In this document: in pieces, positions 17,827 through 32,610 of the stretch | Numbering within the stretch: position 1 is the stretch's first letter | How the letters are laid out: every line of letters begins with the position of its first letter | The notes under the pieces: model-generated | Databases searched by the model: none | What the model was told of the DNA's origin: nothing | The model's input: the letters and a program-made list of their open reading frames with translations, nothing else | Translations under genes and position numbers: made by a program | Source: Hymenobacter jeollabukensis | Lineage (GTDB): Bacteria > Bacteroidota > Bacteroidia > Cytophagales > Hymenobacteraceae | DNA length: 64,000 nucleotides | Direction: 5' to 3' | NCBI RefSeq assembly: GCF_005771675.1 | Contig: NZ_VAJM01000006.1 | Location: 248,001-312,000 of the forward strand

Positions 17827-17845
17827 CACTTCACTAAATCACCGC

Positions 17846-18832: not shown

Positions 18833-18907
18833 ATGGAGAATTCTGAATTATGAATGCTGAATTTTGCCCTGCCCAATTGAGCATTCATAATTCAGAATTC
18901 TCCATTC
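18831..18907. repeat. Perfect inverted repeat, GAATGGAGAATTC type
   Basis: 28-bp perfect arms (18831-18858 and 18880-18907), beginning GAATGGAGAATTCTGAATTA, with a 21-nt spacer. The left arm starts inside the gnd stop codon. It may double as a transcription terminator, though it lacks a T-tract. Confidence 0.9.
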
Positions 18908-18920
18908 ATAATTCATCCCC

Positions 18921-19523
18921 ATGCATAAGGGCCGGCTCGAAGCCTTCAGCGACGGTGTACTCGCCATCATTATCACCATCATGGTGCTGGAAATCAAGGT
19001 GCCGCACGGCCACGGCACCCTGGCCGAGCTGCAGCCGCTGATTCCGGTGGCGCTGAGCTACCTGCTCAGCTTCATCTACATCGGCATTTACTGGAACAAC
19101 CACCACCACATGCTCAGCAGCGCCTCGCGCATCAGCGGGGCGGTGCTCTGGGCCAACCTGCACCTGCTGTTCTGGTTGTCTTTGGTGCCCTTCGCCACCG
19201 GCTGGATGGGCGAAAACCACTTCGCCCCGGCCACGCTCACCATCTACGGGGTGGTGCTGCTGATGGCGGGCGTGGCCTACTGGGTGCTGCAGAACCTGAT
19301 TATCCGCGAAGACGGCCCCGACTCCGTTCTGGCCCATGCCATCGGCCGGGACCTGAAGGGCAAGGCCTCGCCCCCACTCTACATCCTGGGCATCCTGGCC
19401 TCGTTCTGGCAGCCCTGGCTGTCGGGAGCCGTCTACGTGTCCGTGGCGCTGATGTGGCTGATTCCCGACCGCCGCATCGAACGCACCCTGGCCCGCAAAG
19501 CTGCCGGGCCGGTGGGGCATTGA
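18921..19523 (+). CDS. TMEM175-family (DUF1211) membrane protein, putative potassium channel
   Basis: A 200-residue inner-membrane protein with about six hydrophobic segments. The family signature near the N-terminus, RLEAFSDGVLAIIITIMVLEIKVP, corresponds to the pore-lining first helix with the RxxxFSDGVxAI motif of TMEM175 proteins. The downstream ALSYLLSFIYIGIYWNNHHHML and ANLHLLFWLSLVPFATGWMGE are also typical. Bacterial TMEM175 proteins are potassium-selective channels. No regulator domain; monocistronic between two foldback repeats. Confidence 0.87.
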   Translation: MHKGRLEAFSDGVLAIIITIMVLEIKVPHGHGTLAELQPLIPVALSYLLSFIYIGIYWNNHHHMLSSASRISGAVLWANLHLLFWLSLVPFATGWMGENHFAPATLTIYGVVLLMAGVAYWVLQNLIIREDGPDSVLAHAIGRDLKGKASPPLYILGILASFWQPWLSGAVYVSVALMWLIPDRRIERTLARKAAGPVGH

Positions 19524-19559
19524 GCGGTATCTGAAAAAGCAGTCATTGCTTTCTGAACG

Positions 19560-19649
19560 GTCATGCTGAGCCCCGCGAAGCATCTCTACTGATAGTAACC
19601 TATACTATCGGACGAAGCGGTAGAGATGCTTCGCGGGGCTCAGCATGAC
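19560..19649. repeat. Perfect extragenic inverted repeat, CATGCTGAGC type
   Basis: 30-bp perfect arms (19560-19589, 19620-19649) beginning GTCATGCTGAGCCCCGCGAA, around a 30-nt loop that itself contains GATAGT/ACTATC. A degenerate third copy of the unit (GTCATGTCGAGC type) lies on the opposite strand at 19681-19709. Confidence 0.9.
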
Positions 19650-19820
19650 TTTCTGGTTGTTGTTGGTCAACGAAGCGCGCGAGATGCCTCGGCTTCGCTC
19701 GACATGACGGGCCCGGGTTGCTTGTCCGAGCGAAGTCAGCAGATGCGCTTTGTCTGGCGCGGGCGTTGTAAGTTGGCGGGCCGCGGCCTCCGTTGCGCCG
19801 GGGCCTTACTCTGCCCGCTT

Positions 19821-21512
19821 ATGCCTGCTCCCGCCTGGTTTCGTTTGCTGCTGGCCGCGCCCCTGGGTCTGCTGGCGTTGCTTCCCATCTACCGCGCCCA
19901 ACCGGCTACCTCCGCCGCTGCTCCGGCCCCGGTCCCGGCCGACCCCATTATCAGCGCCGCCACCATCGGGCGCTACCTGCGGGCCGTGTCTTCCGATGAC
20001 ATGCTGGGGCGCAAGCCCTTTACCGAGGGCGAGAAGCGTATTACCGGCTATCTGGCGGCCGAGTTCAAGCGCCTGGGGCTGCAGCCGGCACCGGGCGGCA
20101 GCTACTTTCAGCCGGTGCCGCTGGTGGAGATTACCGGCACGCCCGCGCCTACGTTGCAGATCAAAGGCAGCAAGGGAGCGGCGCTCAGCCTGGACTACAA
20201 AACCGACTTCGTGGCCTTCACCCAGCGCGAGCAGCCCGAGGTGGCCGTTACCAACTCCCCGCTGGTCTTCGCCGGCTACGGCGTGACGGCGCCCGAGTAC
20301 GGCTGGGACGACTACCAGGGCCTTGACGTGAAGGGCAAGACGGTGGTGGTGCTCGTCAACGATCCGGGCAACGCGGGCACGGACACCACCCTGTTTCGGG
20401 GCAAGGCCATGACCTACTACGGCCGCTGGACCTACAAATACGAGGAAGCCGCCCGCCACGGCGCCGCCGCCGTGCTCATCGTGCACGACACCCAGCCGGC
20501 GGCCTACCCTTGGTCGGTGGTGCTGAGCGGGGCCATCAGCCCCAAGCTGCGCGCCCAGACCGACAACAAGGGCGCCGACAAGTGCGCCCTGGAAGGCTGG
20601 CTGACCCTGGACGCGGCCAAACGGCTGTTTCAGGCAGCCGGGCAGGACTACCAGGCGCTCTACCAAGCCGCCAACACCAAGGGCTTCCGCCCGCGCCTGC
20701 TCGGGGGGCTCACGCTCACGGGCAGCATCCGTAACCAGCTGCGTCGCCAGACCTCGCAGAACGTGCTGGGCGTGCTGCCCGGCACCCAGCGCCCCGACGA
20801 GTACATCATCTACTCCGCGCACTGGGACCATTTCGGCGTCGGCAAAGCCATCGAGGGCGACTCCATCTACAACGGCGCGGTGGACGATGGCACCGGGCTG
20901 GCCGCTTTGCTCAGCATTGCCGAAGCATTTCAGCAGGCCAAGGTGAAGCCCCAGCGCAGCATCGTGTTCCTTGCCGTGACGGCCGAGGAACAGGGTCTGC
21001 TCGGCTCGGCCTACTACGCCCAGCACCCGCCGTTTCCCCTGAATAAGACGGTGGCCGACCTGAACATGGACATGCTCTGGCCCTACGGCCCGATGAAGGA
21101 TCTGACGGTCATCGGCTACGGCCAGTCGGAGCTGGAGGACTACGCCCGGGCGGCGGCCAAGGCCCAGGACCGCTACCTGCTGCCCGACCAGACGCCCGAA
21201 ACCGGCATGTTCTACCGCTCCGACCACTTCAGCTTCGCCCACGTGGGCGTGCCCTCGCTCTACGCCGCCGGCGGCTTCGAGAGCCGCGCCTACGGCAAGG
21301 ACTTCATTGCCCAGAAGCGCCGCGACTACACCACCAGCATGTACCACAAGCCCGCCGACCAGTTCGACGCCGGCTGGGACCTGTGGGGCATTGCCCAGGA
21401 CGCGGAGCTGTACTACCAGGTGGGCCGGCGCCTGGCCGCCGAAACCACCTTCCCGCAGTGGCGCCCGGGCTCGGAATTTCGGGCGGCGCGGGAGAAGAGT
21501 ATGGGGAAATGA
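19821..21512 (+). CDS. M28 family metallopeptidase with PA domain, exported
   Basis: A 563-residue zinc aminopeptidase. It has an N-terminal signal/anchor (WFRLLLAAPLGLLALLPIY), then an M28 domain interrupted by a protease-associated insert (NSPLVFAGYGVTAPEYGWDDYQGLDVKGKTVVVLVND). The zinc ligands and catalytic acids follow in order: YSAHWDHFG, GAVDDGTGLAALL, AVTAEEQGLLGSAYYA, DLNMDML and YRSDHFSFAHVGVPSLY. It should digest peptides in the periplasm or at the surface. The ATG at 19821 gives the signal peptide; a longer frame would run back through an inverted repeat. Confidence 0.93.
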   Translation: MPAPAWFRLLLAAPLGLLALLPIYRAQPATSAAAPAPVPADPIISAATIGRYLRAVSSDDMLGRKPFTEGEKRITGYLAAEFKRLGLQPAPGGSYFQPVPLVEITGTPAPTLQIKGSKGAALSLDYKTDFVAFTQREQPEVAVTNSPLVFAGYGVTAPEYGWDDYQGLDVKGKTVVVLVNDPGNAGTDTTLFRGKAMTYYGRWTYKYEEAARHGAAAVLIVHDTQPAAYPWSVVLSGAISPKLRAQTDNKGADKCALEGWLTLDAAKRLFQAAGQDYQALYQAANTKGFRPRLLGGLTLTGSIRNQLRRQTSQNVLGVLPGTQRPDEYIIYSAHWDHFGVGKAIEGDSIYNGAVDDGTGLAALLSIAEAFQQAKVKPQRSIVFLAVTAEEQGLLGSAYYAQHPPFPLNKTVADLNMDMLWPYGPMKDLTVIGYGQSELEDYARAAAKAQDRYLLPDQTPETGMFYRSDHFSFAHVGVPSLYAAGGFESRAYGKDFIAQKRRDYTTSMYHKPADQFDAGWDLWGIAQDAELYYQVGRRLAAETTFPQWRPGSEFRAAREKSMGK

Positions 21513-21585
21513 TCCGCCGCCGTTTGCCGACGCTTGCGCATACCTCGTTCTCGAAAGCTGTTTGCGAGGGTTTACTTATGACTAT

Positions 21586-21771
21586 CGAACCCTCAGAAGT
21601 TCTTCGCTAATCCTCCGGAGGTCTTCGCTAATCCTCGGAAGGTCTTACCGAACCCTCCAAAACTCTTACCGAACCCTCCGAAACTCTTACCGAACCCTCG
21701 GAAGTCCTTACCGAACCCTCCGAAATCCTTGCCGAATCCTCCCAAGTCATTTCCGAATCCTCGGGAGAGAC
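21586..21771 (+). repeat. 21-bp minisatellite, about 8.9 units
   Basis: Units of exactly 21 bp with consensus CGAACCCTCCGAAACTCTTAC and scattered substitutions, starting 74 nt after the M28 peptidase stop. Because 21 is divisible by three, both strands stay open: the minus strand would read a GGFGKSF-type heptapeptide repeat. No start or signal supports translation, so I annotate it as a tandem repeat only. Confidence 0.85.
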
Positions 21772-21911
21772 TTGGGAGGGTTTGTTTGAGACTTTTACCG
21801 CTAAAATTCAGTGCTGGCACTGATGTGGAACGCTTAAATGGTCAGCACTTTGGTGCACTTTTCTGCCCCGACGCAGTGAAGCTTGTTTTCCACCTCTTTT
21901 TCTTCACTATC

Positions 21912-22283
21912 ATGGCGTACAAGCTGCGCGACTCCGAATCCATTACCAAGGCCAAGCAACGTCTGGCCGGACTCAACGCTATCGAGCCCTCGGGCAAACT
22001 CGATCTGGGCAACGGCTACGGCACCGAAAGCCTGGCGGCCAAAATTGGCGACGCGGAAGCCCGACTTAAAGTCTACAACGAAGCCCTCAAAACCCTGAGC
22101 AGTCTGAAAAACGAGGTCGATAAAGCAGAAAAAGAGCTGGATAAATTTTCTTCCGGCGTCCTGACGGCGGTGGGCCAGAAGTTCACCAAGGACAGCAACC
22201 AGTACGAGCAGGCCGGCGGCACCCGCGAAAGTAACCGGGTCAAGCGCACAACGAAGGCCCGCAGCAAGCCAGCCGTGGCGTAA
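21912..22283 (+). CDS. Hypothetical coiled-coil protein
   Basis: A 123-residue hydrophilic protein beginning MAYKLRDSESITKAKQRLAGL. A central helical stretch (LAAKIGDAEARLKVYNEALKTLSSLKNEVDKAEKELDKF) has heptad-like spacing of hydrophobic residues. The basic C-terminus (RVKRTTKARSKPAVA) could contact nucleic acid. No family recognised. The start at 21912 is the first Met after the minisatellite and gives a compositionally uniform protein; a longer frame would read through the repeat. Ends at a bidirectional terminator facing pnkp. Confidence 0.65.
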   Translation: MAYKLRDSESITKAKQRLAGLNAIEPSGKLDLGNGYGTESLAAKIGDAEARLKVYNEALKTLSSLKNEVDKAEKELDKFSSGVLTAVGQKFTKDSNQYEQAGGTRESNRVKRTTKARSKPAVA

Positions 22284-22303
22284 GCCCGACTGCCTTGCTC
22301 ACC

Positions 22304-22339
22304 AAACCGCCGCGCTTTCCCGGGAAAGCGCGGCGGTTT
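22304..22339. terminator. Bidirectional terminator between coiled-coil gene and pnkp
   Basis: Perfect palindrome with 18-bp arms (AAACCGCCGCGCTTTCCC and complement), no loop spacer, and T-runs on both strands. Confidence 0.8.
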
Positions 22340-22373
22340 TAGTTGGGCCCGCTGCCATCGTTAGTTGCTTCCT

Positions 22374-25115
22374 TTACAGGCGCGGGTCCACGGCTTCGCT
22401 TTCCAGGGCCAGCACCCCGAACACGCACTGGTGCACCTGCCGTAGCGGCTGCCCGGCCACGAACCGCTCCAGGCCTTCCACGCCGAGGGCGAATTCGCGC
22501 AGGGCCAGGTTGCGCTTGCTCTTCACGTTCCGTTCGCGCAGGCGCTCCAGGTTGCCGGGCAGCAGGTAGTCGGGGCCGTAGATGATGCGCAGGTACTCCC
22601 GGCCGCGGCACTTCAGGGCGGGCTGCACCAGGTTTTTCTGGCCCGCGGGAATGAAGTCGTAGGGCTTCACCACCATGCCTTCGCCGCCGCTGGCGGTCAG
22701 GTCCAGCCACCACTGGGTAGCCGCTTCCACGTCGGGAATGTCGCGCAGCGTCACCACCCGGTAGGGCGTGGCGCGCAGCAGGCCTTCGTCGGCGCGGCAG
22801 AGGGTGCGCAGGGTTTCCATGTGCCAGGCGTGGTCCCGGTCGAAGTACGTGCGGCCCTCGGTGGCCAGCAGGTGGAAGGGCGCCAGGCGCAGGTCGGCCA
22901 GGCTTTCCACCGGCCAGCAGTAGCGCCGGTAGGCCTCTGCGTAGTGCTCGGCCGCGTTCTGCCGGGCCACGGTACGGGCCAGCAGCGCCTCGATGCCGTC
23001 GAGGCCGCGGGTGGCGGCCTGGCTGAGCACGGCGGCGGCTTCGGGCAGGGCGGCGGTAGCGGCCGACGCCACGGCGGCGTACTGGTTTTTGATCAGTTCC
23101 TGGGCCTTGGCCGACCAGGGCAGCAGCTCCGCGTCGAGGCAAACCCACTCCGTGTCGAACCGCTCCCAGAAGCCGCTGGTCGTCAGGGCCGCTTGCAGGC
23201 GGGCGAGGAAGGCGGCTTCCAGGTCGGCGTCGGTGAAGAAGTTGCGGCCGGTGCGGGTGTACACCTTGCCCGGCCCCTCGCCTACCACCCCGAAGCGGCG
23301 GCGGGCGGCGGCTTCGTCGCGGGCCAGCACCACCACCACGCGGCTGCCCATGTGCTTTTCCTCGCACACCACCCGCTCCACGCCCTGCCGGCGGAAGTAG
23401 TCGAAGGCTTCGGCCGGGTGCTCCAGCAGATCGGGCAGAGCCGAGGTTTCGGAGGGCGACATGGTGGGCGGCAGGTACAGCAGCCACTTCGGATTCAGGG
23501 CAAAGCGCGACATGACCTCCAGCGCCGCCGCCGCGTTTTCCTCCCGAATCGTGACTGAGGGCAGCAAGCGGGTCTTGATGATCTGCTTGCCCATCACGTC
23601 GCCGAGGTCGAGCACCTCGTCGTGCAGTTGTTGAGTTGTCAGTTGTGAGTTGTTAGTTGTCAGTTCGTTCTGACCTTCATCACTGGCAACTGACAACTGA
23701 TTACTGACAACTCCCCGCAACGGCCGCACCGGCTCGCAGTAGACTTCGGCGGCGGGCACGGTGACCAGCTCCCGCTCGGGGTAGCGCAGGACGGTGAGGC
23801 GGCCGCCGAACACGCAGCCCGTGTCGATGTCGATGGTGTTGTTGAGCCATTCGGGCTCGGGCACGGGGGTATGGCCGTACACCACCGTGGCCCGGCCGCG
23901 GTACTCGGCGGCCCAGGGGTAGCGCACGGGCAGCCCGAACTCGTCGATTTCCCCGGTGGTTTCGCCGAACAGGGCAAAAGCCCGCACGGCACCCGAGCCG
24001 CGGCCCTGCATTTCTTCGCGCAGGCCGGCGTGGGCCACCACCAGGCGGCCGTTGTCGAGCACATAGTGGCTCACCAGCGAATCAAGAAACTGCCGCACCT
24101 GGTTCTTAAAGGTGTCCGACTCGCCGGCCAGCTGCTGCAGGGTGGCGGCAAATCCGTGCTGCTCGTTGACCTGCTTGCCATTGAGGTAGCGCAGCAGCTT
24201 GATGTCGTGGTTGCCGGGCACGCACAGGGCCAGCCCGTCCTGCACCATGCGCATCACCAGGCGCAGCACCGCCGGGGAGTCGGGGCCGCGGTCCACCAGG
24301 TCTCCGAGGAAGACGGCCTTGCGCGGAGCCTCTTCCCCCGGCCCCCGCTCCGAAAGAGCGGGGGAGTCAGCCGACTGGGTAGCGTCCGGGTCAGTGGCCG
24401 GGAGCCGGCCGGCGGCCGGGCCGTCGGGACGGCGGCTGACGCGCACGCCCAGGTCGCGCACGTCCTGCACCGGCTCGGTTTCCACGATGTAGCCCAGTTG
24501 GTCGAGCAGCTGCACCAGCTCGTGGTAGCAGCCGTGTACGTCGCCGATGATGTCGAAGGGGCCGGATTCGTGGCGCCGGTTGTTGTGCAGCGGGTCGCGC
24601 ACCACGGCCTGCACCGCGTCGATTTCCTCGGGGCCGCGCAGGTGGTAGATGTGGCGAAACCCCTCGCCTTTCAGCAGCTTCAGGGAGCGGCGCAGCTGCT
24701 GGCGCTGCTGGGGCACCACGTGCCGGCCCAGGTGCTGCCGCTCGGCGCGGTGGCGGTTGCGGTCCTCGGCCAGGCGGTCGGGCACGTCGAGCACGATGGC
24801 GGCGGGCAGCACGTGGTAGTCGCGGGCCAGCTGCACCAGCGCCTTGCGCGCCTCCGGCTGCACGTTGGTGGCGTCGACCACGGTGAGCAGGCCGCGCTTC
24901 AGCCGCAGGCCCACCAGGTAGTGCAGCAGGGCAAAAGCGTCGGTGGTGGCGCCCTGGTCGTTTTCGTCGTCGGCCACCAGCGCCCGGCACTGGTCGGAGG
25001 ACACGATTTCGGTGCTGCGGAACAGCCGGCGGGCAAAGGTGCTCTTGCCCGCGCCCGAGGTGCCGATGAGCAGCACCAGGGAAAGTTCGGGGAGCTTGAG
25101 GGAAGTCAGGGGCAT
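22374..25115 (-). CDS. pnkp: Polynucleotide kinase-phosphatase-ligase (bacterial Pnkp)
   Basis: A 913-residue three-domain RNA repair enzyme. Residues ~12-175 are the 5'-OH kinase (P-loop GTSGAGKST at 18-26, DATN at 81-84). Residues ~186-465 are the 2',3'-phosphoesterase of the calcineurin type (FDIIGDVHGCYHEL at 188, GDLVDRGPDS at 271, GNHD at 301). Residues ~500-913 are the RNA ligase/adenylyltransferase (motif I KHMGSR near 587). The enzyme heals broken RNA ends and, with Hen1, seals them. Two in-frame inserts are derived from repeats: residues ~230-264 (a CCCCCGCTC hairpin) and ~468-498 (AGTTGTC heptamers). hen1 lies about 6 kb away, not adjacent as is usual. The ATG at 25115 gives MPLTSLKLPELSLVLLIG. 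Confidence 0.95.
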   Translation of the reverse strand: MPLTSLKLPELSLVLLIGTSGAGKSTFARRLFRSTEIVSSDQCRALVADDENDQGATTDAFALLHYLVGLRLKRGLLTVVDATNVQPEARKALVQLARDYHVLPAAIVLDVPDRLAEDRNRHRAERQHLGRHVVPQQRQQLRRSLKLLKGEGFRHIYHLRGPEEIDAVQAVVRDPLHNNRRHESGPFDIIGDVHGCYHELVQLLDQLGYIVETEPVQDVRDLGVRVSRRPDGPAAGRLPATDPDATQSADSPALSERGPGEEAPRKAVFLGDLVDRGPDSPAVLRLVMRMVQDGLALCVPGNHDIKLLRYLNGKQVNEQHGFAATLQQLAGESDTFKNQVRQFLDSLVSHYVLDNGRLVVAHAGLREEMQGRGSGAVRAFALFGETTGEIDEFGLPVRYPWAAEYRGRATVVYGHTPVPEPEWLNNTIDIDTGCVFGGRLTVLRYPERELVTVPAAEVYCEPVRPLRGVVSNQLSVASDEGQNELTTNNSQLTTQQLHDEVLDLGDVMGKQIIKTRLLPSVTIREENAAAALEVMSRFALNPKWLLYLPPTMSPSETSALPDLLEHPAEAFDYFRRQGVERVVCEEKHMGSRVVVVLARDEAAARRRFGVVGEGPGKVYTRTGRNFFTDADLEAAFLARLQAALTTSGFWERFDTEWVCLDAELLPWSAKAQELIKNQYAAVASAATAALPEAAAVLSQAATRGLDGIEALLARTVARQNAAEHYAEAYRRYCWPVESLADLRLAPFHLLATEGRTYFDRDHAWHMETLRTLCRADEGLLRATPYRVVTLRDIPDVEAATQWWLDLTASGGEGMVVKPYDFIPAGQKNLVQPALKCRGREYLRIIYGPDYLLPGNLERLRERNVKSKRNLALREFALGVEGLERFVAGQPLRQVHQCVFGVLALESEAVDPRL
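23624..23712. repeat. AGTTGTC heptamer foldback inside pnkp
   Basis: Arms at about 23624-23663 and 23682-23712 consist of AGTTGTC/AGTTGTG/AGTTGTT/AGTTGCC units and their complements. The element keeps the pnkp frame open and is translated as a Asn/Gln/Thr-rich linker (NELTTNNSQLTTQQL) between the phosphatase and ligase domains. Confidence 0.85.
24342..24364. repeat. CCCCCGCTC hairpin inside pnkp
   Basis: Stem CCCCCGCTC / GAGCGGGGG with loop CGAAA, translated as SPALSERGP within an extra ~35-residue Pro/Gly/Ala-rich stretch of the phosphatase domain. It resembles an intergenic hairpin that has been captured in the gene. Confidence 0.7.
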
Positions 25116-25542
25116 GGGTAAGGGCGGATATTGAGCCGCTTCCGATATGGGGTTTGATACAGGGTAAGTCCGGTAAAATTGCGCAAACTCCACTAATAGC
25201 GGCTTTTTCGCGGAAGATATCCGTCGAGCGAATGTTTGAGGACGGCGACGCCATTGCCCACGTGTGGTTCAGTTCAAAAACCCGTCTTCGAGTACGGCGA
25301 AGGGCACGATGAGCAGCAAGGCAGCCATGCAAGCTTAGCAGCATCCGGTTTCGCCGGCGGTGTTCTACACGGCCCGGGCGTCGATCAGCCCCGGCAAGAC
25401 ATTGCGGCCACTATCGGGGAACCAGTTGGCAAAATGGGGGCTGGAGCTGCCGCCAATGCCGCAGCTGCCTTAGGAGCTGTATCATTTGGGGATAAGTATA
25501 TTTGGCAAGCGCCGGTTTGCCGGTGGCCCTGGGAGTTACACT
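25116..25542. other. Intergenic region between divergent pnkp and the helical-repeat gene
   Basis: 427 bases. It holds the upstream region of pnkp (minus-strand TTTG at ~25186 and TACCCTG-like box) and, at 25497-25504, the box TATATTTG for the plus-strand gene. A plus-strand frame opens at 25236, but its composition does not look like a protein and it overlaps the next gene in another frame. No RNA gene seen. Confidence 0.5.
25497..25504 (+). promoter_or_regulatory. -7 promoter box of the helical-repeat gene
   Basis: TATATTTG, a full match to TAnnTTTG, 39 nt before the ATG at 25543. It excludes the in-frame ATG at 25486 as a start. Confidence 0.55.
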
Positions 25543-27006
25543 ATGAAACGCCGTTACGTCTTACTTATCAGTGCCTTGCTTATGAGTGGCAGCCCGGCGG
25601 CAGCGCAGCGCCTGTCGCCGCAGGTGCGGCAGCTGGTGAGCCAGCTCCGGCACAAGAACCAGCTGCAGGCGGAGCGCGTCGGCTGGGCTGGCACCACGCC
25701 GGAGCAGTACAAGACCTTTGTTGCCCTGCGGGATACAGCTACCACCGATGAGCTGCTGCGCCTCACCCACCACGCCAACGCCGTGGTGCGGGGCTACGCC
25801 GGTTGGGCGCTGGCCGACCGGGCCTATCCGCAGCTACCGCGCGTGTTTCAGCGCTACCTACACCAGCTGCGCAAAGTCACCAACCAACACGGCTGCATTG
25901 TCGGCCGCAACCGACTGGGACCGGAATTGTATTACCGGGTGGCCCACGATTGTTTCGATCCGGCCGGCGCCGACTCGCTGACTTACGCCCGCCAGCTGGC
26001 CCGGCTCGACAGCATCATTCTCTACCAGTACCCCCGCCACCACCTGGTACGCAGCGCGTTGCGGGGCAACGCAGCCAATCCGCACCGCTACGCCGTGGTG
26101 CGCAACATCTGCCAGCGTAACCCCGATGGCGTGGCGCTGGAGGCCCTGGCCCAGTACCGCCGGCCCGAAGACATCGCGCTGATCCGGGCGCAGGGCAACG
26201 CGGCCTTGGGGGCCATTGCCCGCTTTCCCGACCCCACGTTCTGGCCCCTGCTGACGAGCTTCGACCTCACCGCGTATGCGGGCGAGGCCAACCGGTGGCG
26301 CGCCGAACATTACCTGCCGGAGTATTACCGCGCCCTGGCCAGCTACCGCACTACCGAGGCCATCGGGTTTATCCGCAGCCTGTACCACCAAGGGCGCATC
26401 GTACAGCCGGCCATCCTGGCCGTGGCCCTCGCCGACACCCAGGACCCGGTATACGATGCCCTGCTGCTAGACCTCTGGGCCACGGACAAGCTCATGCTGC
26501 TTCCCGTTGCCAAACGGCTGGCGACCACGCAGCCCGCCGCGGCGGCCCGGGCGTTTGCCCAGGGCCTGCTTGCCCCAGGCCCGTACGAACCGCAGGAGGC
26601 ATATTCCTACTACCGCCTCGACGAGCAGGTTATCGACCTGATGCTGGGCCACTTGCAGCAGCATGACAGCGCGCTGGTTTCGGTAGTTTGCCGGCAAAAC
26701 ATCCAGACGGCCAGCTTTACCCCGCTGAAAATGTTTCTGGAATACGCCCGGCGCCACCAGCTGACTAGCTGCAAGGCCGCTATCATGGCGCGGCTGCAAC
26801 AGCCCAATTCGCCCTTCGACACGTTTCACCTGGCGGAAACGGCCCTGTCTTTCCACGATCCAAGCCTGAAGCCTGAGCTAATCCGCGTACTGACACTGCA
26901 CCGTTCGAGCTGGGACCGGTACAACTGGCCGGAGGCTTTCCGCAAGCTATTCGCGGCCAACGACATTCATCTTGCCGCCTCCCCACCAACGCCTGAAAGC
27001 AAGTAA
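25543..27006 (+). CDS. Exported alpha-helical (HEAT-like) repeat protein
   Basis: A 487-residue protein with a signal peptide (MKRRYVLLISALLMSGSPAAA|QRL). The mature part is almost entirely helical, with repeated helix pairs such as TTDELLRLTHHANAVVRGYAGWALADRAYPQLPRVFQRYL and RPEDIALIRAQGNAALGAIARFPDPTFWPLL. These resemble HEAT/armadillo-type scaffolds; I do not recognise a named family. It is probably periplasmic and protein-binding (inference). It is divergent from pnkp and ends 11 nt before the converging gene at 27018. Confidence 0.75.
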   Translation: MKRRYVLLISALLMSGSPAAAQRLSPQVRQLVSQLRHKNQLQAERVGWAGTTPEQYKTFVALRDTATTDELLRLTHHANAVVRGYAGWALADRAYPQLPRVFQRYLHQLRKVTNQHGCIVGRNRLGPELYYRVAHDCFDPAGADSLTYARQLARLDSIILYQYPRHHLVRSALRGNAANPHRYAVVRNICQRNPDGVALEALAQYRRPEDIALIRAQGNAALGAIARFPDPTFWPLLTSFDLTAYAGEANRWRAEHYLPEYYRALASYRTTEAIGFIRSLYHQGRIVQPAILAVALADTQDPVYDALLLDLWATDKLMLLPVAKRLATTQPAAAARAFAQGLLAPGPYEPQEAYSYYRLDEQVIDLMLGHLQQHDSALVSVVCRQNIQTASFTPLKMFLEYARRHQLTSCKAAIMARLQQPNSPFDTFHLAETALSFHDPSLKPELIRVLTLHRSSWDRYNWPEAFRKLFAANDIHLAASPPTPESK

Positions 27007-27017
27007 GGCGCCACGCC

Positions 27018-27458
27018 CTACTTCCGCACAAACGCTACCTGCCCGTCCTTGTAGGTTTCCAGCAGGCGCGGCTGCAGCTTGCCCCAGTACGTGAGGGTAC
27101 GGCCGGTCTTGGCGTCCTTGTGCAGACGAAAGAGCACGTCCCCGGACTTGAGCTGCTGGAACCTGGCGCCATCGAGGCCTTGCACGAAGAGGACCTGGGC
27201 GTCGGTGGGCGTGCCGGTGGCGCGGACTTTCAGCTTCATAAAGGTCTGCTGGCCTTCCACGCTCAGCTGCCCGCCGAGGGCGCCGTTCTGCGGTTGCAGG
27301 CCCAGCTTCCAGGTCATGGCCATGCTGTAGCCGGCCAGGGCTTTCACGGGTTCTTCCTCGTAGAGGTAGGTGCCGGCCCAGTTGGCGACGCCGGCCGCTT
27401 TGGGGCTGGCAAAAAAGAGCGTAGACCAGGCAGCGAGGGGCAACAGCAGCGTCGTCAT
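27018..27458 (-). CDS. Small exported protein, possibly DUF5991
   Basis: A 146-residue protein with a signal peptide (MTTLLLPLAAWSTLFFASPKAAG) and a beta-rich mature domain: ANWAGTYLYEEEPVKALAGYSMAMTWKLGLQP ... VLFRLHKDAKTGRTLTYWGKLQPRLLETYKDGQVAFVRK. The WAGTYxYEE start and the beta-strand periodicity resemble the DUF5991 group, but I assign this from memory only. Function unknown. It converges on the helical-repeat gene with an 11-nt gap and has an extragenic repeat upstream. Confidence 0.65.
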   Translation of the reverse strand: MTTLLLPLAAWSTLFFASPKAAGVANWAGTYLYEEEPVKALAGYSMAMTWKLGLQPQNGALGGQLSVEGQQTFMKLKVRATGTPTDAQVLFVQGLDGARFQQLKSGDVLFRLHKDAKTGRTLTYWGKLQPRLLETYKDGQVAFVRK

Positions 27459-27568
27459 GGCGGCTAAAGCGTTGGTGGAACCCTGCTTCTAACGAAAAGA
27501 ATGCCACCACGGTCGAGCGTTGATTGCCCAACCCATACCAGTAGGTGTGGACCGCTACCTATCAGAAC

Positions 27569-27668
27569 GTCATGCTGAGCTTGTCGAAGCATCTCTACCG
27601 CTTCGTTGAATCGGTGCGGATGAAGCGGTAAGGACGCTTCGGCAAGCGGAGGCCAGATGAAGCATGAC
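27569..27668. repeat. Extragenic inverted repeat, CATGCTGAGC type (degenerate)
   Basis: Left arm GTCATGCTGAGCTTGTCGAA continuing to 27604; right arm 27622-27668 with an insertion, ending GCATGAC. Same family as 19560-19649 but with diverged arms. Confidence 0.7.
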
Positions 27669-27719
27669 GGCCGTTTTTCTTAACGATCCACAAAGCCTAA
27701 CCCGGCCATCAGCCGTGGG

Positions 27720-29711
27720 CTACTTCGTCACGCTCGTCACTCGAAACTCCACCCGGCGGTTGAGCTTGCGCGTTTCCTCCCGCTCGTTGCTGGCCCGCGG
27801 CTCGGCCCCGCCCAGGCCCACCCCGCTGATGCGCTCGGCGGCCACGCCGTGGCTGACGAGGTAGGTCTTGACGGCCGCCACGCGCTGCTCGCTCAATTCC
27901 ACATTTTTCTGCGGGTCGCCCACGTTGTCGGTGTGGCCGCGCAGCTCGATGCTCATGCCGGGGTTCTGGGCCAGCAGAGCGGCCAGCTGGTCGAGGGCGG
28001 CGAAGGACGAGGGCAGCAGCGCGGCCTGGCCCTGCTCGAACTGCACCTTGTCGAGGGCCGTGACGGTGCCCACGCCCAGGGGCCGCAGCAGGATGTCCTG
28101 CGCCGAAGCGCCGGGTGGCAGCAGGTAGAGGCTGTCGGCGGCGAGGTAGCCGGCCAGCTGGGCCTCGGCCGCGTAGGCGAAGCCAGGCTGGGCCGTAAAG
28201 CTGAAAGTGCCGTCGGCGGCGACGGGCACGGCCCGGCCGCGCAGGCGCAGCTGGGCCCGCGGCAGGGGTTGAAACGTGGCGGCATCGAGCACGCGCCCGC
28301 GCCAGGTAGCCGCGGCGGGCGCCGCCGGAGTGGCCGCCACCGGGGCCGGGTCGGCCGGCGGCGGGGTGCTGCGCCGAAACAGGTTGCAGCCGGCCAGGTC
28401 GGTATACACGCCGCGGCGCACGCGGCGGGCGTCGCGGAACGAGAGGTCGACTTCGTACACCGACTTGGGCCCGGCCAGGTACAGGCGGCGCTGCCCGCTG
28501 GCGTCCTTCTGCATAAGCAGGTCGCTGTAGCCGCCGCGCTCGGGCAGCCCGTCGATGGGCAGCAGGTCGGGGTCGGCCTTGAGGGTGCCCAGGTCGATGC
28601 GCAGCACGGCCCCGTCGGTGCTGTACACCTCGTAGAGCGTGCCCTTGTCATCGAGGCAGAAGTTGGCGTGGGTGCCGGCGCCGGCAAAGCCGATAGCCGG
28701 GTAGTAGGGCGCCTGCTGCACCGGGTCGTGGGTCCAGACCACCGTCACGCGGCCGTCGGCGGGGCTCACGCGCACGAGCTGGTTGGCGTCGGAGGTAATA
28801 AAGTAGAGGCGGCCCCACTCGTCGGTGGCGGCCGAAATCCAGACGCTTTCCCCGCCCTGGGCCGGCAATTGCCACTCGGTGTAGCCGCCCTGCCGGGTGG
28901 CCGGGTCGTAGCGGTACACGTACTCGGGGGCGTTGGTGGGCGCCTTCGTGACGGTGTAGAGGCAGTTGTCGAAGCCCTTGGCCAGGGCGTAGGACTGAAA
29001 AGGCAGCACCTGCCGGTGCACCTTGGGCGGCGCCGCCAGGTCATCGGTGATGAACTCGTGAATCGTGCGGCAGTCATCTTCCCAGATGCCGTCATGGGTG
29101 CGCAGGGCCGCAATGCCGTACATCTTGTCGTCGCAGCCTTGCTCAGCGGCGCGTTTGGCGGCCGGGCCGGCCGCGGCAGCGGCGGGCGCGTTGCCGACGA
29201 ACGTAAACGACTCGACCAGCTGCCGGCCTTCGGCGAGGTAGCGCCGCTCGGCCACCGCCGCCCGGTATTCCACCTGAAACACCTGCCCGCCGCGCCACAG
29301 GCGGCGGCCCAGCACGCGGGTGCGGCCGGCGGCACCCGGGGCGGCGTAGGTGTAGTCGTAGCTGAGTTCCTGGTAGGCGCCGGCGTCGTGCTCGGTCAGG
29401 CGCAGTACCTGGCTGCGGGGCAGGGCCCGCAGGCGGCGCCACAGCGTGTCCGGCTGCCCCTGGGCCAGCGGGTTCGGCGGCGCCTGGGGCAGCACGCGGC
29501 TGGTCAGCTCGACGGCGGCCGGCGGGGCCTGGGGCGCGCCGCCGGCGTAGAACGTCACCGCGCCGGCGTCCTGACTTACCTGCCAGGTGGAAGGGTACGT
29601 GAGCCGGTAGCCCAGGCGGGCATCGGTGTAGGCCTGGCCCGCCGCCGGACCCTGGGCGCGCAGGACCGGCCCGCACAGCATCAGGACAAGCAGCGTCAGC
29701 AAAACCTTCAT
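27720..29711 (-). CDS. OmpA-family outer membrane protein with N-terminal beta-propeller-like region
   Basis: A 663-residue exported protein. A signal peptide (MKVLLTLLVLMLCGPVLRAQ) is followed by a PsbP-like/uncharacterised domain (residues ~25-165) and a region of WD/NHL-like repeats (LYTVTKAPTNAPEYVYRYDP, VWISAATDEWGRLYFITSDANQL). Then comes a carboxypeptidase-regulatory-like beta-sandwich (WRGRVLDAATFQPLPRAQLRLRG) and a C-terminal OmpA peptidoglycan-binding domain (IELRGHTDNVGDPQKNVELSEQRVAAVKTYL ... RKLNRRVEFRVTSV). It anchors the outer membrane to peptidoglycan. The ATG at 29711 follows a TAACTTTG promoter box at 29781-29774. Confidence 0.9.
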   Translation of the reverse strand: MKVLLTLLVLMLCGPVLRAQGPAAGQAYTDARLGYRLTYPSTWQVSQDAGAVTFYAGGAPQAPPAAVELTSRVLPQAPPNPLAQGQPDTLWRRLRALPRSQVLRLTEHDAGAYQELSYDYTYAAPGAAGRTRVLGRRLWRGGQVFQVEYRAAVAERRYLAEGRQLVESFTFVGNAPAAAAAGPAAKRAAEQGCDDKMYGIAALRTHDGIWEDDCRTIHEFITDDLAAPPKVHRQVLPFQSYALAKGFDNCLYTVTKAPTNAPEYVYRYDPATRQGGYTEWQLPAQGGESVWISAATDEWGRLYFITSDANQLVRVSPADGRVTVVWTHDPVQQAPYYPAIGFAGAGTHANFCLDDKGTLYEVYSTDGAVLRIDLGTLKADPDLLPIDGLPERGGYSDLLMQKDASGQRRLYLAGPKSVYEVDLSFRDARRVRRGVYTDLAGCNLFRRSTPPPADPAPVAATPAAPAAATWRGRVLDAATFQPLPRAQLRLRGRAVPVAADGTFSFTAQPGFAYAAEAQLAGYLAADSLYLLPPGASAQDILLRPLGVGTVTALDKVQFEQGQAALLPSSFAALDQLAALLAQNPGMSIELRGHTDNVGDPQKNVELSEQRVAAVKTYLVSHGVAAERISGVGLGGAEPRASNEREETRKLNRRVEFRVTSVTK

Positions 29712-29773
29712 AGGCAACAAAACAAACTCGGCGCGTAACGGCCGAACTACGACGTTCGGCCGGCCTACTAACG

Positions 29774-29781
29774 CAAAGTTA
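29774..29781 (-). promoter_or_regulatory. -7 promoter box of the OmpA-family gene
   Basis: Minus-strand TAACTTTG, a full match to TAnnTTTG. The leader would be about 57 nt, and longer in-frame starts upstream are excluded. Confidence 0.55.
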
Positions 29782-29902
29782 CGCCCGGTTTGCTCCCCGC
29801 CGCCGCAATTCGCCGGCACCCACTCGCCCGGCCAGGCGGCGGCAGGCGCAGTCTACGGCTGATTCTCAGGCAGAAGGCCGATCTGCAGCAATCGAATAAC
29901 GA

Positions 29903-29975
29903 GTAAAAAGGCGCGTCCTGCTTCCTTTGACGTCCGCGCGGTCGATAGATCAAGCAGGACGTTCAAAAGGCGCTT
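29903..29975 (-). terminator. Possible terminator behind the HxlR gene
   Basis: On the minus strand AAGCAGGACG pairs with CGTCCTGCTT over a 28-nt loop and is followed by GCGCCTTTTTA. It is the only hairpin in the 327-base gap 29712-30038, which otherwise contains just the OmpA-gene promoter. Confidence 0.45.
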
Positions 29976-30038
29976 TTCAGGCTCAACCCCACAGCTACTG
30001 ACCCGGCCACGGCCGGCTTTGCTGCGCGGCGCCCGGCT

Positions 30039-30452
30039 CTACGCCGACAGCGCATCCGGCGCGGCCCACTCGGCGGCGGTGGCCTCCAGGGTTTCGGGGT
30101 GCATGATGTGGCGGCGGTGCTGCTGGCCCCAGGTGTGCAGCGACTCGATGACCGGGTAGAGCGTGCGGCCGTAGGCGGCCAGCGTGTACGTGACGGCCAC
30201 CGGGGCCACGTCGGCCTGCACGTGGCGGGTAATGAGGCCGTTGATTTCCAACTCCTTCAGCTCCTTGCTGAGCATTTTGGCCGTGATGCCGACCACCTCG
30301 CGCTGCAGCTGCTTGAAGCGCCGCGGGCCGCTGGTGAGGCCCACGATGATGGGCAGCTTCCACTTGCCACCGAGCAGGTCGAGGGCGTCGCGCACGGAGC
30401 GCATGGCGGTGGAGCATTCGTGCGAGGAGAGGTCGGGGTGAGTCGGGTGCAT
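30039..30452 (-). CDS. HxlR-family winged-helix transcriptional regulator
   Basis: A 137-residue HxlR regulator. It begins MHPTHPDLSSHECSTAMRSVRDALDLLGGKWKLPIIVGL, with the single conserved Cys near the N-terminus that is often redox-sensing in the family, followed by the winged helix RRFKQLQREVVGITAKMLSKELKELEINGLITRHV and wing PVAVTYTLAAYGRTL. The ATG at 30452 lies 4 nt after GACCTTTG, suggesting a leaderless message. It is divergent from a DoxX-like gene, and a perfect 8+6+8 inverted repeat between them (30482-30503) is the likely operator. Confidence 0.9.
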   Translation of the reverse strand: MHPTHPDLSSHECSTAMRSVRDALDLLGGKWKLPIIVGLTSGPRRFKQLQREVVGITAKMLSKELKELEINGLITRHVQADVAPVAVTYTLAAYGRTLYPVIESLHTWGQQHRRHIMHPETLEATAAEWAAPDALSA

Positions 30453-30481
30453 GATGCAAAGGTCGTTAGAAATCAGGCCGC

Positions 30482-30503
30482 TATACCGGGGCACACCGGT
30501 ATA
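30482..30503. promoter_or_regulatory. Putative HxlR operator
   Basis: TATACCGG-GGCACA-CCGGTATA, a perfect inverted repeat in the 159-bp gap between the divergent HxlR and DoxX genes. A related half-site (CGGTAAACCG) follows at 30507-30516. Position and symmetry suit control of both promoters. Confidence 0.6.
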
Positions 30504-30611
30504 CTTCGGTAAACCGCTATCCGATTCACACCCCACTGCGGCCACCTTTGCCGGCAGCAGCGCCCCGCCGACCAGGGCCTGCGCGTCCCCTCACCTACCA
30601 CCGTTACCCCC

Positions 30612-30983
30612 ATGACTGTCAACAAGAAAACCCTCGTGACCGGGCTGGTCACCGCCGTGCCCGCCTTGATGATTACGGCCAGCGGCATCATGAAGCTGCT
30701 CGGCAGCGCCGAAATCCGCGACGCCATGAGCAAAGCCGGCGCGGCCGAGCTGCGCGTACCGCTGGGCCTGATGGAGCTGGCGTTTACGGCCCTGTTCATC
30801 TTCCCGCGCACCATGAAGCTGGGGCTGCTGCTGCTCACCAGCTACTTCGCCGGCGCCATTGCCACCGACCTCACCCACGGCAAAAGCCCCGGCCCGGCCG
30901 TTATGATCCTGACTCTGGTCTGGATTGCCGCCTTCGTGCGCGACCGGTCGGCTTTCCTGCCCGCTGCGCCGGCCCACAGCTGA
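30612..30983 (+). CDS. DoxX-like membrane protein
   Basis: A 123-residue four-helix inner-membrane protein: VTGLVTAVPALMITASGIMKLLG, PLGLMELAFTALFIF, LGLLLLTSYFAGAIATDLTHG and AVMILTLVWIAAFV. The ASGIMKLLG and YFAGAIATDLTHG segments fit the DoxX-like family, which is often paired with redox or electrophile-responsive regulators. The pairing with a divergent HxlR gene and shared operator suggests it is that regulator's target. No catalytic residues. Confidence 0.82.
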   Translation: MTVNKKTLVTGLVTAVPALMITASGIMKLLGSAEIRDAMSKAGAAELRVPLGLMELAFTALFIFPRTMKLGLLLLTSYFAGAIATDLTHGKSPGPAVMILTLVWIAAFVRDRSAFLPAAPAHS

Positions 30984-31107
30984 TAGCGCTGCTGCGCCTG
31001 CACCCGTTCCGATCAGGCTGCTACTTCGGGCAGCCTGTAACTTCCCGGCTCCTGTCAGGTCCGTTGCTCAGCTACCATTTGGGATTGTCGGAAAGTGCCA
31101 TTAGAAC

Positions 31108-31145
31108 GTCATGCTCCATTCGGCAAATGCCGGATGGAGCATGAC
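31108..31145. repeat. GTCATGCTC hairpin between DoxX and hen1
   Basis: Stem GTCATGCTCCATTCGGCA against its complement with a single G-T mismatch, loop AAT. It resembles the CATGCTGAGC repeat family at its ends. It may end both converging transcripts. Confidence 0.6.
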
Positions 31146-31176
31146 CCACTATTGAGCGTACTCTCGACCAACGCCG

Positions 31177-32610
31177 CTAGCCCTCCCGCTCAAACACGGC
31201 CAGCTGCGAGGGCGCCCCGACTTCAGCGTCCTCCGGCCCCAATGGTTCGACCCGCAGGCGGTAGCCGTGCCGCCCGGCCACGCCCGCGGCCCAGGCTTCG
31301 AACTGCGCCCGCGTCCATTCGAAGCGGTGGTCGTGGTGGCGGAACTGCCCGGCCGAGAGGGTTTCGTAGCGCTGGTTGTAGTCGGCGTTGGGCGTGGTGA
31401 CGAGCACGGCGCCGGGCCGGGCGCGGGCAAACACCACCTGCTCGAACGTGGCCAGCCGGCTCTCGTCGAGGTGCTCGATGACTTCCACCACGGCCGCCGC
31501 GTCGTAGCCGGCCAGGCGCGGGTCGTGGTAGAGCAGGGAGCCCTGCGTGAGCGTGAGCCGCTCGCGCTGCCGCGGGGGCATCTCGGCCACGTGCAGCCGC
31601 TCCTGCGCCCGCTGCAGCTCCTGCCACGACACGTCCAGGGCCAGGATGTGCTCCACCTGCGGCAGGCGCAGCAGGCGGCGCACCAGCTGGCCTTCGCCGC
31701 AGCCCAGATCGAGCACCCGCCGGGCCCCGAGGCGCTGAATTTCCTCGGCCACCCGGTCGAGGCGCAGCGCGTGCAGCTTCTGCGTCTTCTCCTCGGCGGC
31801 GGGCGCCGGTTCGCCCGCCGCTTCCGCCTCGCCGATGGCGGCGGTTTCCGTATCGTCCGAGGCCGGTTCGTCGGCGGCCAGCAGGCGCTCCAGGGTGGGG
31901 TTCACGTACTGGGCTAGGTTGCGCAGGTAGCGGCGGGTGATGAACTCCCGCTCGGGGTGCTCGGGCAGCCAGCCGGCGCCGCGCAGCAGCAGCTTCTCGG
32001 CTTCGGCCTGATTGATCCAGTAGTGCTTGTCGCCGCGGTCGAGTACGGGCAGCAGCACGTAGAGGTGGCTGAGCAGGTCGCGCAGGCGGCGGGCCGGGTG
32101 GCGCAGGCGCAGGGTGAAGTAGCGGCCCTCGCCCCAGGCCGGCACGGTGGGGTCGAGCGGGTGCGGTTCGGCTTCGACGGCATAGCCCAGCGGCCCGAAC
32201 AGCCGGTGCAGCTGCTCGGCGCCGGCCGCCGGCACCACGGCCACCGTGGCTTCCAGCGGCAGCAGGGTATCGGGCAGCTCGGGGCGGTCCTTGCAGGTGC
32301 CGTTCATGGCCGTGTTGAAGGCCTTGGCCAGGGCCGTGCTCAGAAACGACGAGGCCACGTACGGCCGGTCGTTGACGTACTGCTCCAGCGCGAAGCCCTC
32401 CCCCGCCGGCCCGCGGTGGTTGCGCACCAGCCCGATGGGGTCGAGGTCGAGCAGCAGGGCGGCGGTGCAGCGCTCCGCGGTGGCTTCGGGGTAGAAAATA
32501 TGGGCGTGGCCCGCCGCCACTTCCAGCGTCTGCAGGCGGGCGGGGTTCTTGTGCAGCAGGTAGCCCAGGTCGGTGGCGGGCTGGTGGGTAGTGGTAATGG
32601 TCAGCAGCAT
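31177..32610 (-). CDS. hen1: 3'-terminal RNA ribose 2'-O-methyltransferase Hen1
   Basis: Bacterial Hen1, 477 residues. The N-terminal half (residues 1-250: LLTITTTHQPATDLGYLLHKNPARLQ, FYPEATAERCTAALLLDLDPIGLVR, YVNDRPYVASSFLSTALAKAFN) is the Pnkp-ligase-activating domain. The C-terminal half is the methyltransferase: VLDLGCGEGQLVRRLL near residue 300, the metal-binding EVIEH near 375 and HHDHRFEW near 424. It methylates the 2'-OH at the 3' end of cleaved RNA so that the repaired RNA resists a second cut. Its partner pnkp is on the same strand but about 6 kb upstream, with five unrelated genes between. All catalytic residues seem present. Confidence 0.95.
   Translation of the reverse strand: MLLTITTTHQPATDLGYLLHKNPARLQTLEVAAGHAHIFYPEATAERCTAALLLDLDPIGLVRNHRGPAGEGFALEQYVNDRPYVASSFLSTALAKAFNTAMNGTCKDRPELPDTLLPLEATVAVVPAAGAEQLHRLFGPLGYAVEAEPHPLDPTVPAWGEGRYFTLRLRHPARRLRDLLSHLYVLLPVLDRGDKHYWINQAEAEKLLLRGAGWLPEHPEREFITRRYLRNLAQYVNPTLERLLAADEPASDDTETAAIGEAEAAGEPAPAAEEKTQKLHALRLDRVAEEIQRLGARRVLDLGCGEGQLVRRLLRLPQVEHILALDVSWQELQRAQERLHVAEMPPRQRERLTLTQGSLLYHDPRLAGYDAAAVVEVIEHLDESRLATFEQVVFARARPGAVLVTTPNADYNQRYETLSAGQFRHHDHRFEWTRAQFEAWAAGVAGRHGYRLRVEPLGPEDAEVGAPSQLAVFEREG

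What the first reader, a model, noticed from the sequence alone, without database searches (positions are those of the whole stretch)
22374..32610. RNA repair genes pnkp and hen1 are separated by about 6 kb, with RlaP-type nucleotidyltransferases in the same window
Sequence: complete Pnkp (three catalytic domains intact) and complete Hen1 (both halves and the metal motif EVIEH/HHDHRFEW) lie on the same strand with five unrelated genes between. Two RlaP-type nucleotidyltransferases lie at 7212-9122. Family knowledge: Pnkp and Hen1 act as one complex and their genes are normally adjacent; RlaP was named for its association with RNA ligases. Inference: this genome may keep a dispersed RNA repair set, perhaps with an added end-modifying step.
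Basis: partly seen in the sequence, partly recalled or inferred. Interest (0 to 1): 0.7.

Follow-up and report, generated by a model that had tools for sequence, protein, structure and literature searches.

The report
Scattered but co-inherited RNA repair genes
In Hymenobacter bacteria, four genes that probably repair cut RNA (two core repair genes and a pair of nucleotide-adding enzymes) are pushed apart by unrelated genes yet usually keep the same order and strand and tend to be present or absent together, which suggests a known repair machine with an added end-rebuilding step.

Summary
Pnkp (22374-25193, -) and Hen1 (31177-32610, -) are intact, 5,983 nt apart with five genes between. Two tandem RlaP-type nucleotidyltransferases (RlaP1 8361-9122, RlaP2 7212-8285, both -) lie 13.3 kb beyond Pnkp. 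The genome is a Hymenobacter. In 200 family genomes RlaP1 is in 93 of 100 with intact hen1 and pnkp (two of the 93 fragmentary) and in 13 of the other 100. Linked copies are almost always on one strand, although genes between them turn over and two thirds point the other way. Outgroups hold the set compact, so the window shows a loosened former operon; atpH-atpA, as control, is adjacent in 30 of 30 of these genomes. Outside the family the RlaP pair also sits beside RtcB or Pnkp1-Rnl-Hen1 genes, and in about half of the loci read beside no ligase found: a shared module, not specific to Pnkp-Hen1. A second locus of the genome has TROVE, an array of YrlA-like RNAs and RtcB. Best reading: a split RNA-repair set in which the RlaP pair rebuilds broken ends before healing, methylation and ligation. 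RlaP activity is inferred. A new variant of a known kind.

The parts
31177..32610 (-). hen1: N-terminal ligase-activating region (Hen1_L) + 2'-O-methyltransferase
   Evidence: Pfam (Hen1_L 351.4 bits); motifs EVIEH and HHDHRFEW
22374..25193 (-). pnkp: 5' kinase, 3' phosphatase, adenylyltransferase/ligase in one chain
   Evidence: Pfam (AAA_33, Metallophos, PNKP_ligase 604.7 bits)
8361..9122 (-). rlaP1: full-length RlaP nucleotidyltransferase, catalytic G-S...SD-D motif intact
   Evidence: alignments A2/A4; AF2 model pLDDT 95.9, nearest solved fold HalB
7212..8285 (-). rlaP2: divergent RlaP paralogue, 75 nt after rlaP1, with a long conserved, mostly helical C-terminal half
   Evidence: AF2 model pLDDT 94.6
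25486..30983 (.). five intervening genes between hen1 and pnkp (not part of the system): 506-aa protein (+), DUF5991 (-), OmpA (-), HxlR regulator (-), DoxX_2 (+)
9123..22373 (.). 13.3 kb with 12 called open frames (5 same, 7 opposite strand) between rlaP1 and pnkp; close relatives G002 and G006 have 13 and 12 there, the sister G001 has none (141-nt gap)

Best explanation
The window holds four genes of one RNA-repair set: hen1, pnkp, rlaP1 and rlaP2. They descend from a compact operon and have been pried apart by unrelated genes while mostly keeping order, strand and co-inheritance. SHOWN here: domain content, intact motifs, co-occurrence in the family, conserved order and strand, compact arrangements in outgroups, and a second locus with TROVE, Y-like RNAs and RtcB. 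INFERRED: that the compact form is the older one, and the mechanism. After a ribotoxin or anticodon nuclease cuts a tRNA, the RlaP pair (template-independent Pol-beta-type nucleotidyltransferases) puts back nucleotides lost from a broken end; Pnkp dephosphorylates the 3' end and phosphorylates the 5' end; Hen1 opens the Pnkp ligase and 2'-O-methylates the 3' end; Pnkp seals it, leaving a tRNA resistant to the same cut. At least three transcription units are implied, because opposite-strand genes lie in both long gaps.
For: Family profile: RlaP1 in 93 of 100 genomes with intact Hen1+Pnkp (two of the 93 fragmentary), 13 of the other 100; Hen1-RlaP and Pnkp-RlaP phi 0.82 over 200 genomes. Order and strand: hen1-pnkp on one strand in 97 of the 99 genomes with both on one contig; pnkp-rlaP1 within 25 kb in 81 of 85 on one contig, all 81 on one strand. 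In the 35 Hen1-first genomes mapped, the 164 open frames in the two long gaps are 113 opposite and 51 same strand, from 31 and 48 families, 77 in all. Control: atpH-atpA adjacent in 30 of 30 of these genomes. Compact outgroups: G344 WYL | hen1 pnkp (294 aa) rlaP1 rlaP2; L257, L264, L268, L247. Congruence: pairwise distances of the four proteins correlate 0.82-0.95 over 36 genomes. RlaP pair next to two other ligase types. Both paralogues keep the G-S...SD-D motif; RlaP1's nearest solved fold is HalB, solved in complex with oligodeoxyadenylate.
Against: The co-occurrence is not corrected for phylogeny. Seven of 100 intact Hen1+Pnkp genomes lack RlaP1 (G005, G099, G121, G164, G191, G192, G196) and in two more it is fragmentary, so RlaP is not essential. 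In 4 of 85 genomes rlaP1 is 270 kb or more from pnkp. In the wider phylum 20 of 23 RlaP genomes lack Hen1_L and 2 of 5 Hen1 genomes lack RlaP. Of 17 such RlaP-only loci read, 9 showed no ligase gene with my queries: single RlaP in G275, G416, G233, G303 and G480, pairs in G486, G286, G409 and G482. I know of no measured RlaP activity or contact with Pnkp; no solved structure by sequence. The RlaP2 fold match is weak (E 0.011). No housekeeping protein was compared for the congruence test.
Confidence: 0.68

Rival explanations
1. The RlaP pair belongs functionally to the RtcB/TROVE repair branch and only sits near pnkp-hen1 because the ancestral island contained both ligase systems.
For: In G053, G018 and G008 of the same family the order is rlaP1-rlaP2-rtcB with hen1-pnkp after it. 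RtcB lies near RlaP2 in 14 of 80 sampled genome loci and TROVE in 9 of 80. RlaP without hen1/pnkp is found in G010 and G056 with RtcB and TROVE close by.
Against: In the g1/g5 genomes mapped, RlaP stayed with pnkp while RtcB/TROVE are at another locus. RlaP tracks Pnkp (phi 0.82) better than TROVE (phi 0.64) in the family. G344 and L257 have RlaP with hen1-pnkp and no RtcB seen in the stretch.
Confidence: 0.3
2. The dispersal is decay: the system is being lost and the scattered genes are remnants without selection.
For: Broken or partial copies occur: hen1 with a stop in G129/G131, pnkp in four pieces in G055 and two in G183, short pnkp remnants in G086/G112, RlaP1 with a stop in G036.
Against: All four genes are open and full-length in the window and in G002 and G006 with the longest gaps among those mapped; catalytic motif residues are invariant or nearly so. 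97 of 98 hen1-pnkp pairs within 25 kb keep one strand.
Confidence: 0.12
3. Co-occurrence is only shared descent of a neutral neighbourhood: genes that sit together are lost together.
For: Close relatives G000, G002 and G006 share many of the same intervening genes; no phylogenetic correction was made.
Against: Intervening open frames come from 77 families and change between relatives while the core four stay. Other lineages link the RlaP pair to unrelated ligase systems.
Confidence: 0.12
4. Assembly artefact separates hen1 and pnkp.
For: The genome is in 27 contigs.
Against: Much the same gap contents are found in the separate assemblies of G002 and G006, and gaps form a continuum over 98 genomes.
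Confidence: 0.01

Closest known systems
Bacterial Pnkp-Hen1 RNA repair complex
   Same: Tri-functional Pnkp and two-part Hen1, motifs intact
   Different: PMC4411300 (passages) says the two genes are always in the same operon; here they are 5,983 nt and five genes apart, and a tandem RlaP pair is co-inherited
[quoted passage not shown]
   Same: Family membership, active-site motif, presence beside RNA ligases; predicted in PMC7824862 (passages) to restore lost nucleotides before ligation
   Different: Two paralogues in tandem, one with a long extra conserved C-terminal half; tied here to Pnkp-Hen1 across a family
Pnkp1-Rnl-Hen1 complex
   Same: Its genes carry the same RlaP pair nearby in G220 and G403
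   Different: Ligase and kinase-phosphatase are separate proteins there; the window has the fused Pnkp
rsr-yrlBA-rtcBA operon of Salmonella
   Same: TROVE/Rsr, Y RNAs and RtcB together at the genome's second repair locus
   Different: The Salmonella operon name gives two Y RNAs, yrlB and yrlA (PMC7790460 passages), against 7-8 units in the window's genome

Membership tests
Pnkp-Hen1 RNA repair system | Pnkp with kinase, phosphatase and ligase domains | tested here: met
Pnkp-Hen1 RNA repair system | Hen1 with ligase-activating N-terminal region and methyltransferase | tested here: met
   motifs
Pnkp-Hen1 RNA repair system | Genes in the same operon | tested here: not met
   5,983 nt apart with two opposite-strand genes between; estimated gap under 300 nt in 18 of 98 relatives. 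This is a gene-order feature, not one of protein identity
Pnkp-Hen1 RNA repair system | Physical complex and repair activity | not testable with these tools
   needs biochemistry
RlaP (PF10127) | Score above the Pfam cut-off | tested here: met
   257.9 and 87.6 bits, cut-off 23; the second over profile positions 16-140 only
RlaP (PF10127) | Pol-beta-type G-S...DxD catalytic motif and fold | tested here: met
   motif; fold: RlaP1 to HalB and aminoglycoside nucleotidyltransferases with E below 0.001, RlaP2 only E 0.011
RlaP (PF10127) | Linkage to RNA ligase genes | tested here: met
   not in every locus (9 of 17 RlaP-only loci without a ligase found)
RlaP (PF10127) | Adds nucleotides to broken RNA | not testable with these tools
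   prediction in PMC7824862 (passages)
YrlA Y RNA (RF02553), second locus | Rfam gathering score 69 bits | tested here: not met
   best 35.3 bits, E 1.2e-5; looks like a YrlA in structure but is below the family threshold

The most novel reading that the evidence does not exclude
RlaP1 and RlaP2 form a two-subunit end-rebuilding enzyme, a portable module that restores nucleotides trimmed from anticodon loops and serves three different sealing systems (Pnkp-Hen1, Pnkp1-Rnl-Hen1, RtcB). In Hymenobacter it makes Pnkp-Hen1 repair possible after nucleases that remove bases as well as cut, while TROVE with a multi-copy array of tRNA-mimic Y RNAs handles or decoys the same damage from a second locus.
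Probability: 0.3. Interest if true: 0.75.

Novelty: new variant of a known kind. Interest (0 to 1): 0.52.

Why it matters
Pnkp-Hen1 can repair a clean cut, but some nucleases also remove the wobble nucleotide (RloC, as cited in PMC7824862, passages). A nucleotidyltransferase pair that accompanies Pnkp-Hen1 in about nine of ten genomes of a family that have it gives a concrete candidate for the missing refill step and a system to test it in. The loosened but order-keeping gene cluster is also a clean case for asking what holds gene order once co-transcription is gone.

Tried and rejected
Considered and dropped: chance proximity (the family profile and compact outgroups speak against it); a wholly new system (each of the four proteins belongs to a named family); assembly error (similar gaps appear in separate assemblies of relatives).

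Led nowhere: sequence search of solved structures for both RlaPs (best E 0.034 and 0.51, unrelated proteins). Rfam at gathering thresholds found only two tRNA-Asp in the window and nothing in the five TROVE/RtcB stretches given with it. A first hand-written Y-RNA scan had a wrong helix register and found almost nothing; corrected. A scan for a Bacteroidota-type promoter element (recalled) gave 20 matches against 10.6 expected, none of them on the right strand just upstream of hen1, pnkp or rlaP1; not used. Paper searches: none of the held papers has both 'Hymenobacter' and 'RNA repair'; 'RlaP' with 'RNA ligase' is in two papers. Burroughs and Aravind 2016, cited as the source of the RlaP family, is not held; what I say of it rests on PMC7824862 and PMC6514570 passages and recall, so I cannot exclude that it already lists RlaP beside Pnkp-Hen1. 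Multi-copy Y RNAs may also be in print: one search listed three papers on my terms, none of which I opened for this.

Not done: phylogeny-corrected co-occurrence, dN/dS, expression.
Full report
WHAT IS THERE. On the minus strand, in order of transcription: hen1 (31177-32610), a gap of 5,983 nt with five genes, pnkp (22374-25193), a gap of 13,251 nt with 12 called open frames, rlaP1 (8361-9122), 75 nt, rlaP2 (7212-8285). Motifs of the catalytic domains are intact (motif meaning recalled). RlaP1 matches the whole RlaP profile; RlaP2 matches only positions 16-140 and carries a long, highly conserved C-terminal half. The window is 64 kb of contig C24 of a 6.18 Mb, 27-contig genome.

DO THEY GO TOGETHER? 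In 200 genomes of the family I searched Hen1_L (110 have it), PNKP_ligase (112) and RlaP (110). Full-length domains of both Hen1 and Pnkp occur in 100. RlaP1 is in 93 of these and in 13 of the other 100 (Fisher p 4e-33, not corrected for relatedness). Two of the 93 are fragmentary (G036, G163). The 7 exceptions are G005, G099, G121, G164, G191, G196 and G192, the last with one weaker RlaP match in a 400-contig assembly. Eight genomes with an RlaP match have no hen1 or pnkp match (G010, G056, G075, G102, G114, G127, G133, G150; in G102, G114 and G133 only a weaker match); eight more have partial ones. In the window's genus (8 genomes, and the tables) five have all three, G005 lacks RlaP, and G003 and G007 lack all three.

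ORDER AND STRAND. Of the 100 genomes, hen1 and pnkp share a contig in 99 and a strand in 97; 98 are within 25 kb. With average gene lengths assumed, the gap is under 300 nt in 18, 300-1500 in 29, 1500-4000 in 28 and 4000 or more in 23 of these 98; the window's genome ranks 91st. pnkp and rlaP1 share a contig in 85 genomes and lie within 25 kb in 81, all 81 on one strand, rlaP1 downstream in 73 and upstream in 8; in 4 they are 270 kb or more apart, and in 8 more genomes they are on different contigs. I mapped 37 of the 100 genomes besides giving the window the same treatment. In the 35 with hen1 first, the open frames between hen1 and pnkp number 64 (45 opposite strand; 31 families) and between pnkp and rlaP1 100 (68 opposite; 48 families; 77 families in all); one of the 64 is a pnkp-like fragment in G093. 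Because opposite-strand genes lie inside both long gaps of the window, one simple transcript cannot serve the set. As a control for general gene shuffling, atpH-atpA is adjacent in 30 of 30 of these genomes: 29 by direct gap of 3-122 nt, one by full-length similarity to another locus. This is one operon of core metabolism; other accessory operons were not compared.

WHICH STATE IS OLDER? The outgroup G344 (same order, other family) has a WYL-domain regulator opposite to hen1-pnkp-(294 aa)-rlaP1-rlaP2, all tight. Agaribacillus aureus (L257), a Sporocytophaga (L268), a Flammeovirgaceae MAG (L264, pnkp only in its short contig) and an uncultured Cytophagales (L247) also hold hen1 and/or pnkp close to the RlaP pair. 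G053, G018 and G008 of the same family have rlaP1-rlaP2-rtcB and then hen1-pnkp, directly in G053 and after further genes in G018 and G008, with TROVE in G018 and a second rtcB plus a release-factor-like gene (RF-1 domain, PrfH-like) in G008. A WYL-domain regulator lies opposite the RlaP pair in G053 and G008 (Pfam run on G053's). So the compact form is most likely ancestral (inference). On a tree of the four proteins short and long gaps are interleaved. The window's clade (G000, G002, G006) has 12.9-14.1 kb between pnkp and rlaP1 while its sister G001 has 141 nt. Distances of the four proteins correlate 0.82-0.95 over 36 genomes, as expected for co-inheritance; no housekeeping control was run for this.

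WHAT ELSE DOES THE RLAP PAIR SIT WITH? In 296 Bacteroidota genomes Hen1_L is in 5, RlaP in 23, both in 3 (Fisher p 0.004). I read 20 stretches: G344, the two Hen1-only genomes and 17 of the 20 RlaP-only genomes. Of the 17: G220 and G403 hold Hen1_N (PF22032) and a stand-alone PNKP_ligase, and in G220 also HAD_PNKP plus kinase by Pfam, that is the Pnkp1-Rnl-Hen1 type, near RlaP1 and RlaP2. G474, G293, G407 and G211 hold an RtcB only 27-28% identical to the query (Pfam RtcB in the two tested, G474 and G293) and a WYL-type regulator; G324 and G282 hold a closer RtcB. The other nine showed none of my ligase queries: single RlaP in G275, G416, G233, G303 and G480; RlaP1 and RlaP2 in G486 (about 14 kb apart), G286, G409 and G482. 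Within their flanks of up to 10 kb RlaP1 is in 60 of 80, Pnkp in 25, Hen1 in 14, RtcB in 14, WYL in 11, TROVE in 9. In viral contigs, 98 relatives, 80 kept: RlaP1 in 14, Pnkp1-like in 7, RtcB in 1. RlaP is therefore a module shared by several sealing systems, in line with its name, and not a Pnkp-Hen1 subunit by definition.

THE SECOND LOCUS. The genome's one RtcB match and its TROVE match lie on contig C26; the two open frames (L145:7587-9116 TROVE, L145:10801-12270 RtcB, both confirmed by Pfam) are 1.7 kb apart on one strand. TROVE is in 102 and RtcB in 164 of 200 family genomes. Hence in the window's lineage the old island appears split in two. Between TROVE and RtcB lies a tandem array of tRNA-mimic RNAs, reported under 'noticed'.

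STRUCTURE. AlphaFold2 models: RlaP2 pLDDT 94.6, RlaP1 95.9. RlaP1's nearest solved folds are HalB of the Hailong system (E 1.6e-5, TM 0.40-0.44 for the top chain) and aminoglycoside nucleotidyltransferases. RlaP2's best match is kanamycin nucleotidyltransferase with E 0.011 and TM 0.23-0.30 over 150 columns, a weak match. The motif G-S...SD-D is invariant in 68 RlaP2 rows and in 36 RlaP1 rows, apart from one S of RlaP1 at 90% or more.

MECHANISM. Pnkp-Hen1 chemistry (dephosphorylation, phosphorylation, Hen1-dependent sealing, 2'-O-methylation giving resistance to a second cut) is taken from PMC4411300 (passages). The refill role of RlaP is a published prediction (PMC7824862, passages), not an experiment. 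What this work adds is that an RlaP pair is co-inherited with Pnkp-Hen1 over a bacterial family and is also present beside two other ligase systems, which fits a general refill step upstream of sealing. Which of the two RlaPs acts on RNA, and whether they act together, is unknown.

LIMITS. Counts are from a sample drawn evenly by the tool; relatedness inflates the significance. Gap sizes over the 98 genomes are estimates from domain positions. Gene calls in the mapped stretches come from open frames supported by similarity, not a gene finder. I could not read the paper that named RlaP.

Noticed in passing
L145:9616-10787 (second locus of the window's genome, contig C26, between TROVE and RtcB): Tandem array of 7-8 units, mostly about 130-170 nt with shorter ones at the end, each with a Y-RNA-like closing stem and most with a T-arm and a D-arm. 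In 23 aligned units (of 34 called in 7 genomes; short and some other units left out) 19 of 29 pairs change on both sides and 0 of 500 shuffles reach this (structure derived from these units). A model from them matches 105 of 200 family genomes, median 6 copies, maximum 10; 101 of these also have TROVE (102 in all). Rfam YrlA matches three units, below threshold (best 35.3 of 69 bits).
   Followed up: yes
window ~23630-23700, inside pnkp; another copy of the motif at 5416-5427: The linker between the Pnkp phosphatase and ligase domains carries an in-frame stretch coded by a GTTGTCAGTTG / CAACTGACAAC palindromic repeat. Several Hymenobacter Pnkps have a different insert of similar style at this place (QLSV...ELTTDNQQLTT, SSADSVVR...RTTESAL) while others have a short linker. 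Looks like repeated insertion of palindromic elements into one tolerant site; not counted or tested further.
   Followed up: partly
L193:6822-17652 and L194:1596-12660: Loci with Pnkp1-Rnl-Hen1 type genes followed by rlaP1 and rlaP2; in L193 an AAA ATPase (AAA_21) lies between the two RlaPs.
   Followed up: partly
L301, L304-L316: RlaP1-RlaP2 in tandem in 14 of 80 viral-contig loci. In most of them the contig is about 38-44 kb and the pair lies at or near its end (L314 is a 7.7 kb contig; L307 also has RtcB): phage cargo or host flank of prophages.
   Followed up: no
L145:6094-7395: A PcfJ-like protein (PF14284, 46.5 bits) sits directly upstream of TROVE here; the same family is in 3 of the other 10 TROVE/RtcB stretches mapped. 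A possible further member of the TROVE locus.
   Followed up: no
L146:8278-9120: A microbial-type PARG (PF10021, 156 bits) follows TROVE directly in G113, with a relative at the same place in G123: ADP-ribose chemistry beside the Y-RNA array.
   Followed up: partly
L189:6498-7382: In the compact operon of G344 a 294-aa protein without a Pfam match lies between pnkp and rlaP1.
   Followed up: no
window 2514-2588 and 3987-4061: Two tRNA-Asp(gtc) genes about 1.4 kb apart on the minus strand, scoring identically.
   Followed up: no
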